From assembly GCF_030813715.1 (NCBI RefSeq), contig NZ_JAUSUZ010000001.1, positions 3,100,001-3,164,000 on the forward strand: 64,000 bases of DNA, given 5' to 3'. The stretch is from Catenuloplanes indicus (GTDB taxonomy: Bacteria; Actinomycetota; Actinomycetes; Mycobacteriales; Micromonosporaceae). The notes beneath the pieces are model-generated. The model was not told where the DNA came from. It saw only the letters and a program-made list of their open reading frames with translations, and did no database searches. Below, piece after piece: positions 48,999-49,597 of this stretch. The position numbers and the translations under genes were made by a program. The first letter of the stretch is position 1. Every line of letters starts with the position of its first letter.

Positions 48999-49088
48999 AT
49001 GGAATATGACGTGCCGGGCTGGCTGGGCTGGGTGATCGCGGGCGTGGGGGTGCTGGTGCTGACGGCGAGCGCGATATTGCTGGCGTGA
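48999..49088 (+). CDS. 29-residue single-helix membrane peptide
   Basis: ATG at 48999 with GAGGGG seven bases upstream, ending at TGA 49086-49088. The peptide is an amphipathic start (MEYDVPGWLGW) followed by one hydrophobic helix (VIAGVGVLVLTASAILLA). There is no family match. The sequence that follows, up to about 49195, is open in another frame (AVTFAREQANTFEVTDGK is readable), so this may be the front of a frameshifted gene rather than a true micro-protein. Confidence 0.4.
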   Translation: MEYDVPGWLGWVIAGVGVLVLTASAILLA

Positions 49089-49194
49089 GAAGCTGCAGCA
49101 GGCGGTGACGTTCGCCCGCGAGCAGGCGAACACGTTCGAGGTCACCGACGGGAAGGCCGGGGAGGCCGTCTTCGGCTATCTGTTCGCGCGATAA

Positions 49195-49253
49195 CTCGAG
49201 GACTCCCCGCTGTGGAGCGGCGGGGTGGGGTGCCCGATGCGGCGCCCGGACAA
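49195..49253 (+). ncRNA. Degenerate permuted tRNA-like module (weak)
   Basis: A CTCGAGG T-loop-like sequence is followed by CCCCGCT, a GTGG spacer, AGCGG-c-GGGG (complement with one inserted base), and then a long D-arm-like hairpin (GGGTGCC/GGCGCCC). The order repeats that of the clearer modules downstream, but there is no T-stem. Treat it as a possible decayed copy. Confidence 0.2.
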
Positions 49254-49296
49254 GCTGAGACCGAACGGATCAGACTGAACGCTCGATGGTGACAGT

Positions 49297-49353
49297 GAAG
49301 GCTCGAGTCCTTCCCCCGCGACCACACCGCGGGGTAGCCCAACCGGCAGAGGC
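49297..49353 (+). ncRNA. tRNA-like module in permuted order (T-arm, acceptor, CCA, acceptor, D-arm)
   Basis: T-arm GAAGG-CTCGAGT-CCTTC (perfect 5-bp stem, 7-base loop with C56-R57-A58 pattern) is followed by acceptor 3' strand CCCCGCG, then A-CCA. After CAC comes the exact complement CGCGGGG, then TA and a D-arm, GCC-CAACCGGCAGA-GGC. The acceptor 5' strand therefore lies downstream of its own 3' strand and CCA. A standard tRNA in either direction is not possible, because the next T-arm's acceptor strand (TCGCGCC) does not pair with CGCGGGG. The anticodon arm cannot be assigned with confidence. Confidence 0.4.
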
Positions 49354-49423
49354 AGCTTTCGGCGACTCAAGGTCAGACTCTCGCTCCAGGCTCAGCATTC
49401 GCCACCGATCGCCAGATCGAACG

Positions 49424-49507
49424 GTCGCGGAGTGACGCCACGTGATACCGGTTCGAGCCCGGTTCGCGCCTCCAACACGGCGCGGTAGCTCAATGGCAGA
49501 GCGCGAC
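49424..49507 (+). ncRNA. Second permuted tRNA-like module, complete cloverleaf
   Basis: Order along the plus strand: GTCGC (49424-49428); a variable-arm hairpin GTG-ACGC-CAC (49432-49441); T-arm ACCGG-TTCGAGC-CCGGT (49447-49463); acceptor TCGCGCC; T-CCA (49471-49474); ACAC; acceptor GGCGCGG (49479-49485, six pairs plus one G-T); TA; D-arm GCTC-AATGGCA-GAGC (49488-49502); and GCGAC (49503-49507), which pairs with the first GTCGC. Folded, this is a cloverleaf whose ends are at the anticodon loop and whose acceptor is closed by a CCA-bearing loop. The T-loop and D-arm are fully canonical. Confidence 0.45.
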
Positions 49508-49567
49508 GGCTTTAGCCTCATCCGCGGTCTTGAACGCCACTGGCGTGCGCAATTGGGTGGTCGACGT

Positions 49568-49597
49568 GGGGCCCCGGGTAGGGTAACCCGGGGCCCC
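49568..49597. terminator. Strong terminator between tRNA-like region and cutinase
   Basis: GGGGCCCCGGGT pairs perfectly with ACCCGGGGCCCC over 12 bp with a 6-base loop. It lies 60 bp after the second tRNA-like module on the plus strand and 8 bp after the cutinase stop on the minus strand. Confidence 0.85.

What the first reader, a model, noticed from the sequence alone, without database searches (positions are those of the whole stretch)
49195..49510. Tandem tRNA-like modules in circularly permuted order
Two clear modules (about 49297-49353 and 49424-49507), and perhaps a decayed third, run T-arm, acceptor 3' strand, CCA, 3-4 base spacer, acceptor 5' strand, TA, D-arm. The acceptor strands complement each other within each module (7/7 and 6/7 plus G-T), not between neighbours, so a row of ordinary tRNAs does not explain them. 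Module 2 also has a pairable anticodon-stem base (GTCGC/GCGAC) at its two ends and a small variable hairpin. Permuted tRNA genes are known in some algae and archaea; I know of no established case in actinobacteria. A strong terminator follows at 49568. Degenerate pseudo-tRNAs are the main alternative.
Basis: partly seen in the sequence, partly recalled or inferred. Interest (0 to 1): 0.82.

Follow-up and report, generated by a model that had tools for sequence, protein, structure and literature searches.

The report
Twin-headed tRNA-mimic RNA beside DUF7873
The odd sequence is real: it looks like a noncoding RNA with two heads shaped like tRNAs read in rotated order, which elsewhere lies next to an unstudied protein gene (DUF7873) in soil bacteria and large phages, although this bacterium has lost most of that gene.

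Summary
Both modules have paired T and D arms and 7/7 acceptor pairing. By comparison with relatives they cap two long conserved stems of one RNA of about 310 nt. There is no consistent anticodon. Rfam's nearest family is YrlA, the tRNA-mimicking bacterial Y RNA: E 2e-5 for module 2, below the gathering score. No Ro/TROVE match was found in this genome. Instead the RNA lies just downstream of DUF7873 (PF25283, unknown function). Modules follow 122 of 125 DUF7873 loci within 700 nt; none lies within 1200 nt upstream. In 300 family genomes all 114 listed RNA hits of 60 bits or more lie downstream of a DUF7873 gene or, here, its remnant; 105 of 107 full genes have one. The pair also occurs in large phages, some of them inside tRNA arrays. 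In the window a deletion of about 656 nt left only the last ~35 codons of DUF7873. Most likely this is the orphaned RNA half of a Ro-independent, Y-RNA-like ribonucleoprotein. Pairing with the gene is well supported; function is inferred and no transcript was seen.

The parts
48999..49088 (+). 29-aa small ORF upstream; its stop lies at the left edge of the deletion that removed most of DUF7873
   Evidence: sequence; blastn against four congeners breaks at 49083-49094 and resumes about 656 nt further on in them (size reckoned by hand); coding not tested
49087..49194 (+). remnant of DUF7873 (PF25283): the last ~35 codons of a ~244-codon gene
   Evidence: PF25283 match residues 210-243, E 5e-9; full-length match in four congeners, e.g. 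L062:7108-7842, 365.9 bits
49201..49230 (+). G+C-rich hairpin at the 5' side of the RNA region
   Evidence: sequence; kept in four congeners
49252..49279 (+). stem A, 5' strand (AAGCTGA.ACTGA... motif)
   Evidence: consensus structure of 29 relatives, window not among them; mapped to the window by motif
49297..49353 (+). module 1: T arm 49297-49313, acceptor 3' strand 49314-49320, loop 49321-49327 (begins ACCA), acceptor 5' strand 49328-49334, TA, D arm 49337-49353
   Evidence: T loop begins CTCGA where 90 of 91 two-module relatives have TTCGA
49373..49399 (+). stem A, 3' strand (TCAGACTCTCGCTCCAGGCTCAGCATT)
49401..49431 (+). stem B, 5' strand
   Evidence: window CGCCAG/CTGGCG against CGCCGG/CCGGCG in G047 is a compensatory change
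49447..49502 (+). module 2: T arm 49447-49463, acceptor 3' strand 49464-49470, loop 49471-49478, acceptor 5' strand 49479-49485, TA, D arm 49488-49502
   Evidence: RF02553 (YrlA) 33.7 bits over 49425-49530; model R1, which includes this row, 106.8 bits
49518..49561 (+). stem B, 3' strand, with the common CTTAAACG motif (CTTGAACG here)
49568..49597 (+). conserved 3' hairpin (possible terminator; no U-tract)
   Evidence: terminator scan negative

Best explanation
The feature is the RNA half of a conserved two-part unit: a gene for DUF7873, followed on the same strand by one structured RNA of about 310 nt. The RNA has two long irregular stems in tandem. Each is capped by a tRNA-like head made of T arm, D arm and a 7-bp acceptor stem closed by a short loop, with the anticodon arm replaced by the stem. 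Each half is built like a bacterial YrlA Y RNA, but the linked protein is DUF7873, not Ro60/Rsr. Shown by comparison: structure conservation, compensatory change, linkage to DUF7873, spread in actinobacteria and phages, and loss of most of DUF7873 in this genome. Inferred: DUF7873 binds the conserved stems as Ro60 binds Y RNA stems, and the heads are handles for proteins that read the tRNA elbow or acceptor (pseudouridine or dihydrouridine synthases, RNase P, EF-Tu, exonucleases or tRNA nucleases), so that the particle tethers or sequesters them. In this bacterium the RNA is an orphan and perhaps beginning to decay. I put about 0.9 on the DUF7873-RNA unit, 0.8 on the Y-RNA-like architecture, and 0.35 on tethering or sequestering through the heads.
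For: Modules follow 122 of 125 DUF7873 loci within 700 nt, none of 125 lies within 1200 nt upstream, and 2 of 125 occur on the reverse strand (many loci are close kin and some are duplicates). Conversely, in 300 family genomes all 114 listed R1 hits of 60 bits or more are within 700 nt downstream of a DUF7873 gene or its remnant, and 105 of 107 full-length genes have one (from; about 12 candidates were scored per genome). The other two, G007 and G092, have hits of 58.6 and 57.1 bits in place. Covariation: module 1 score 0.403 against 0.135 shuffled, module 2 0.558 against 0.180; stem B, not used in choosing rows, 0.444 against 0.210, 94.7% paired. YrlA is the best Rfam match, over the full model. 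The unit is found in 9 of 10 fetched phage records. Of 33 IMG/VR loci with DUF7873, 32 have a module and 10 have five or more tRNA genes within the roughly 10 kb held. AlphaFold2 gives a confident DUF7873 model (pLDDT 92.4) with no PDB match at E 1e-3 or better. In the window the RNA has 12 private changes in 394 sites against 77 in 6525 sites of neighbouring genes; the other four congeners pooled have 50 against 731 (Fisher p 0.026).
Against: No transcript, binding or function data exist here. YrlA's gathering score (69 bits) is not reached here or in any of 300 family genomes. The single-sequence fold of the window RNA is no more stable than shuffles (z 0.16, 58 of 100 shuffles as good) and does not recover the two-stem model. 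Stem A is mostly invariant, with weak covariation (0.155 against 0.119). The helix joining each head to its stem is poorly paired: 55% for both on the MAFFT alignments (one flanking pair of module 2 36%), 64% for module 1 on the segment alignment. 33 of 125 loci show one strict module and 3 show none, so two heads are not obligatory. Rows of A4, A5 and one search were chosen by the descriptor, so the T, acceptor and D percentages are conditioned; stems A and B were predicted on the same rows on which they were scored. In the three viral records that have both TROVE and DUF7873, the genes lie about 2.7, 4.2 and 6.4 kb apart, so a functional tie to Ro is possible there. Congener G006 also has faster RNA than genes and G047 about equal, so the decay argument is weak.
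Confidence: 0.75

Rival explanations
1. Ordinary Y RNAs (YrlA) that serve a Ro60/Rsr protein; DUF7873 is only a neighbour, or an accessory of the Ro system.
For: YrlA is the best Rfam match. TROVE is commoner in DUF7873 genomes: 46 of 109 against 38 of 191 (not corrected for kinship). TROVE-linked YrlA hits exist in the same family. In the three viral records with both, TROVE lies 2.7-6.4 kb from DUF7873.
Against: No TROVE match in this genome, in three of four congeners that have the RNA, in 63 of 109 DUF7873 genomes, or in 30 of 39 records tested (the 24 viral ones may be fragments). In the 46 family genomes with both, 14 have them on one contig and the nearest are 159 kb apart. All R1 hits of 60 bits or more are DUF7873-linked; the TROVE-linked ones I noted reach 58.5, though the weakest DUF7873-linked ones overlap that range (57.1).
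Confidence: 0.1
2. Circularly permuted tRNA genes, processed to working tRNAs.
For: Permuted order, intact elbow and acceptor, CCA encoded in 34 of 91 (module 1) and 23 of 91 (module 2) loci; ARAGORN calls a tRNA body after rotation.
Against: No anticodon shared across relatives; the outer ends pair on into long conserved stems; close link to a protein gene.
Confidence: 0.03
3. Decayed remains of a tRNA gene array or mobile element.
For: tRNA arrays occur near the related systems; the window copy has lost most of its protein gene.
Against: Acceptors pair within modules; orthologous RNA in all four congeners held and covarying relatives in other genera and in phages.
Confidence: 0.02
4. A cis-acting 3' UTR element of DUF7873 mRNA (stability or autoregulation) rather than a free RNA.
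For: Same strand, median distance from gene to R1 hit 212.5 nt; no promoter-like site found in the window (sigma-70 only).
Against: Two tRNA-like heads on long stems exceed the usual needs of a UTR element (judgement); the RNA persists in this window without the gene.
Confidence: 0.1

Closest known systems
Bacterial Y RNA YrlA (Rfam RF02553)
   Same: Permuted T arm, acceptor stem and D arm as a tRNA-like module on a stem formed by the two ends; full-length alignment to the model. YrlA traits as in passages of PMC8394870.
   Different: Two such units in one RNA of about 310 nt against 90-150 nt; linked to DUF7873 instead of Rsr/Ro60; below the gathering score.
TROVE-linked YrlA-like RNAs of the same bacterial family
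   Same: tRNA-like modules next to an RNA-binding protein gene, some with tRNA arrays nearby.
   Different: Linked to TROVE, not DUF7873; R1 scores noted up to 58.5 bits.
Permuted tRNA genes of algae and archaea (recalled)
   Same: 3' half before 5' half.
   Different: No shared anticodon; the ends run into long stems.
tmRNA (recalled; one passage in PMC8394870)
   Same: A tRNA-like domain in a larger RNA.
   Different: Two permuted modules; no tag-coding part was looked for; Rfam gave no tmRNA match.

Membership tests
YrlA / bacterial Y RNA (RF02553) | Rfam gathering score of 69 bits | tested here: not met
   33.7 and 20.6 bits; 0 of 300 family genomes reach it, TROVE-bearing ones included
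YrlA / bacterial Y RNA (RF02553) | tRNA-like module with D, T and acceptor arms in permuted order | tested here: met
YrlA / bacterial Y RNA (RF02553) | stem formed by 5' and 3' parts of the unit | tested here: met
   in relatives: stem B strongly, stem A weakly; not seen in the window's own minimum free energy fold
YrlA / bacterial Y RNA (RF02553) | Ro60/Rsr (TROVE) partner | tested here: not met
   no PF05731 match in own genome; 63 of 109 DUF7873 genomes lack one
YrlA / bacterial Y RNA (RF02553) | binding to Ro60 and PNPase | not testable with these tools
   needs biochemistry
permuted tRNA gene | 3' half before 5' half with matching acceptor strands | tested here: met
permuted tRNA gene | anticodon arm with a conserved anticodon after rejoining | tested here: not met
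   anticodon calls vary between loci and, for the window's module 2, between cut points
permuted tRNA gene | splicing of the ends to a linear tRNA | not testable with these tools
   needs RNA sequencing
ordinary tRNA gene array | tRNA genes called in normal order | tested here: not met
   0 tRNAs in the window
DUF7873-linked RNA (defined here) | lies within 700 nt downstream of a DUF7873 gene | tested here: met
   only a remnant in the window (49087-49194); full-length gene in four congeners

The most novel reading that the evidence does not exclude
DUF7873 and its twin-headed RNA form a ribonucleoprotein of phage origin that manages tRNA-acting enzymes during infection: a decoy or tether with two tRNA-mimic heads that shields phage-coded tRNAs from, or recruits, tRNA nucleases, repair or processing enzymes. 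Actinobacteria have taken it over as a chromosomal system, in parallel with Ro60/Y RNA.
Probability: 0.25. Interest if true: 0.88.

Novelty: new variant of a known kind. Interest (0 to 1): 0.72.

Why it matters
Bacterial Y RNAs are known as RNAs of Ro60-like proteins. A widespread relative in build, with two tRNA-like heads and a different, unstudied protein, would suggest that tRNA-mimicking tether RNAs are a more general design, and gives DUF7873 a first testable role. Its place inside some phage tRNA arrays links it to the open question of why large phages carry many tRNAs. It also explains at least one likely misannotation, a 'suppressor tRNA' in Klebsiella phage vB_KpM_FBKp24.

Tried and rejected
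Row of ordinary or decayed tRNAs: rejected on acceptor pairing and the array control. Permuted tRNA gene: rejected for lack of a shared anticodon. Sub-threshold Twister-sister, sX12, BjrC68 and other Rfam matches: taken as chance, as each lies far below its gathering score. Coding in the conserved motifs (AAG CTG AAA CTG...) was weighed by eye and dropped, since several relatives carry stops in that frame. First AlphaFold2 run with 7 sequences was poor (pLDDT 51.8) and was not used. Fold searches gave nothing at E 1e-3 or better (PDB best Pur-alpha, E 0.054; BFVD best E 0.012). Sequence search of PDB gave nothing better than E 0.12. NCBIfam gave only a weak match far below its cut-off and PHROGs none. 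Literature: 0 papers hold the word DUF7873. Searches listed no title on this RNA; I read passages of six listed papers and the rest only as listings. The key Y RNA papers are not held, so prior description cannot be excluded.

mis-trimmed one congener (G006) and its counts were dropped; one search replaced it and counted 10 private changes in the window RNA, against 12 in the differently trimmed alignment, which I used. Alignment A1 held one row on the wrong strand and was replaced by A2. Rows dropped before counts: A4/A5 use 39 loci left after dereplication from 78 with short spacers, out of 89 with two or more modules, plus the window; one search uses 29 of those 39 and not the window; one search uses the 91 two-module loci of 132 loaded (125 plus 7 phage records); one search uses 88 two-module loci including the window; TROVE was sought in 39 records, of the 113 loci.

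Full report
WHAT IS THERE. The window (G000:C1:3100001-3164000 of a 9.25-Mb genome) has no tRNA by ARAGORN and no Rfam match at gathering scores. A descriptor scan finds two modules on the + strand, at 49297 and 49447, and none on the other strand; 20 Markov sequences of 64 kb gave 5 matches in total. Each module reads T arm, acceptor 3' strand, short loop, acceptor 5' strand, TA, D arm, with the acceptor paired 7 of 7 within the module and 5 of 7 between modules. With permissive thresholds Rfam's best match for both modules is YrlA, the bacterial Y RNA: module 2 33.7 bits, E 2e-5, model 1-114; module 1 20.6 bits, E 0.12; gathering score 69. A caution: the YrlA model also rings on tandem tRNA genes, for instance an array of 10 tRNAs elsewhere in this genome and in 13 of 14 control genomes at E up to 1. 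The evidence below therefore does not lean on YrlA scores.

CONTEXT. All four congeners held have the same RNA at the same place. Upstream of it they have a full-length DUF7873 gene of about 244 codons (PF25283; 365.9 bits for L062:7108-7839). In the window only its last ~35 codons remain (49087-49194; PF25283 residues 210-243, E 5e-9). By the blastn coordinates about 656 nt are missing, with GCGTG shared at both breakpoints in L062. No other DUF7873 match is in the genome, and no TROVE/Ro match.

THE UNIT. At least one module lies within 700 nt downstream in 122 of 125 loci (two in 87, three in 2, one in 33, none in 3: L154, L158, L177), within 1200 nt upstream in 0 of 125, and on the reverse strand downstream in 2 of 125. 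Many of these are close kin, and three pairs of viral loci look like duplicates. The converse test used model R1, built from module 2 of 40 rows including the window. Over 300 genomes of the family, with about 12 candidates scored per genome, 114 of 114 listed hits of 60 bits or more lie within 700 nt downstream of a DUF7873 gene or, in the window, its remnant; 105 of 107 full-length genes have such a hit (data). The window's hit scores 106.8 bits, tenth in the list, but it is one of the model's own rows. At lower scores R1 also finds TROVE-linked RNAs (up to 58.5 bits among those I noted) and, presumably, tRNA arrays: 228 of 300 genomes have some hit at E 1e-3.

STRUCTURE. On 40 rows each, T, acceptor and D stems are 98-100% paired with many compensatory changes: covariation 0.403 against 0.135 shuffled and 0.07-0.13 slid for module 1; 0.558 against 0.180 and 0.09-0.15 for module 2. 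These scores include the short helix that joins head to stem, which is only about 55% paired in both alignments. The rows were selected by the descriptor, so the percentages are conditioned; the controls show the descriptor rarely fires by chance and not at 7/7 on the tRNA arrays tested. Independent of that selection, RNAalifold on 29 rows gives two long irregular stems. Stem B, under module 2, is 94.7% paired with covariation 0.444 against 0.210 shuffled and 0.05-0.20 slid. Stem A, under module 1, is 87.7% paired, with only weak covariation (0.155 against 0.119), since it is nearly invariant in sequence. The stems were scored on the rows from which they were predicted. So the RNA appears to be two YrlA-like units in series. 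Over 91 two-module loci the T loop begins TTCGA or TTCAA, the discriminator is A in 80 (module 1) and T in 67 (module 2), and CCA is encoded in 34 and 23. Against this picture: the minimum free energy fold of the window RNA alone is no better than shuffles (z 0.16) and does not show it.

NOT A tRNA. Rotated modules are called tRNA-like by ARAGORN at one or more of three cut points in 58 of 88 (module 1) and 88 of 88 (module 2) loci, with anticodons that differ between loci. The window gives Pro(cgg) for module 1 at two of three cuts and nothing at the third; module 2 gives Val(gac), Val(cac) and an undefined call.

PHAGES. DUF7873 occurs in 73 of 50,697 phage records, as 'hypothetical protein' or unannotated in the rows listed, in phages of Vibrio, Gordonia, Rhizobium, Klebsiella, Serratia, Arthrobacter, Pseudanabaena, Rhodococcus and Microcoleus, and in 4 plasmid records. 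Of ten fetched, nine have a strict module downstream, four of them two; Microcoleus phage has none. The unit sits within tRNA arrays in some, for example Gordonia phage Phendrix and six IMG/VR loci with 16-36 tRNAs in the stretch held; 10 of 33 IMG/VR loci have five or more tRNAs, 16 have none. In Klebsiella phage vB_KpM_FBKp24 part of the RNA is annotated as a suppressor tRNA. TROVE is present in 6 of 15 bacterial genomes and 3 of 24 viral records with DUF7873. In those three viral records the two genes lie 2.7, 4.2 and 6.4 kb apart; in the 46 family genomes with both, the nearest are 159 kb apart. 46 of 109 DUF7873 genomes of the family have TROVE against 38 of 191 without (not corrected for kinship).

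THE PROTEIN. AlphaFold2 with 53 sequences gives pLDDT 92.4, pTM 0.67: long helices and, as I read the strand order, two beta-beta-helix repeats. No PDB or viral match reaches E 1e-3; Pur-alpha, a nucleic-acid-binding fold (recalled), is the top PDB row at E 0.054 and probability 0.44, too weak to use. Invariant or nearly invariant basic and polar residues (R40, K116, K158, N162, H163, H172, R220) would suit RNA binding; this is inference.

STATE OF THE WINDOW COPY. The window lineage has 12 private substitutions in 394 RNA sites against 77 in 6525 sites of neighbouring genes (seven gene stretches summed by hand); G067 3:73, G084 2:132, G047 11:172, G006 34:354. Fisher p is 0.026 against all four pooled, 0.0004 against G067 and G084. 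Changes include T54 to C in module 1, CTGAGACTGA to CTGAGACCGA, and CTTAAACG to CTTGAACG, where the outgroup L080 agrees with the congeners. This fits early decay after loss of the protein, but G006, with intact DUF7873, also shows faster RNA than genes and G047 about equal rates, so it is only suggestive.

HOW IT MAY WORK. By analogy with passages read on Ro60/Rsr and YrlA (PMC8394870, PMC7790460, PMC8058203: the Y RNA stem holds Rsr, the tRNA-like part is modified by DusA and TruB and tethers PNPase), I infer that DUF7873 binds the stems and the two heads engage tRNA-reading proteins. The phage setting suggests protection or management of tRNAs. PMC7824862 (passage) notes TROVE proteins in some jumbo phages as a platform for RNA repair; PMC7765460 and PMC12282133 (passages) report Ro-like proteins in Vibrio and Listeria phages. 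None of these passages mentions DUF7873. The founding YrlA papers (Chen 2014; Sim and Wolin 2018; Wang 2018; Sim 2020) are not held, so I saw nothing of them beyond citations.

VERDICT. Observation confirmed; interpretation as permuted tRNA genes replaced by a Y-RNA-like, twin-headed RNA linked to DUF7873 rather than Ro, orphaned in this genome. It resembles YrlA in build but fails YrlA's score and partner tests, so it is not filed as a member.

Noticed in passing
L022, L023, L025, L030, L034, L035 (family genomes): TROVE genes and YrlA-like RNAs in this bacterial family sit beside arrays of 4-16 tRNA genes in these loci, suggesting mobile elements.
   Followed up: partly
L182:5001-8635 (IMG/VR contig): DUF7873 with its RNA lies about 2.7 kb before a TROVE gene, with three further 7/7 modules between them; L181 and L191 also have both genes within 6.4 kb.
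   Followed up: partly
L201:4018-4097 (Klebsiella phage vB_KpM_FBKp24): Annotated 'tRNA-Sup-TTA' overlaps the linker and module 2 of the DUF7873 RNA, probably a misannotation.
   Followed up: partly
L002 (G000:C1:945395-945504): Sub-threshold YrlA match inside an array of 10 tRNA genes of the same genome: Rfam's YrlA model fires on tandem tRNAs.
   Followed up: yes
L068:6736 and L070: Two loci of another genus carry a third, weaker module (acceptor 6/7) after module 2.
   Followed up: no
G297:C1:30919-31617: A second DUF7873 copy appears broken into four pieces, besides a full-length copy on C2.
   Followed up: no
window 49568-49597 and relatives: The 3' hairpin is conserved, with a GGATA/GGGTA-like loop and a following GCCA(T/C)GTCC in many relatives; a loop-tail pairing is conceivable.
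   Followed up: no
family genomes: TROVE and DUF7873 co-occur more than expected (46 of 300 against 30.5), though far apart in the genomes where both are on one contig.
   Followed up: partly
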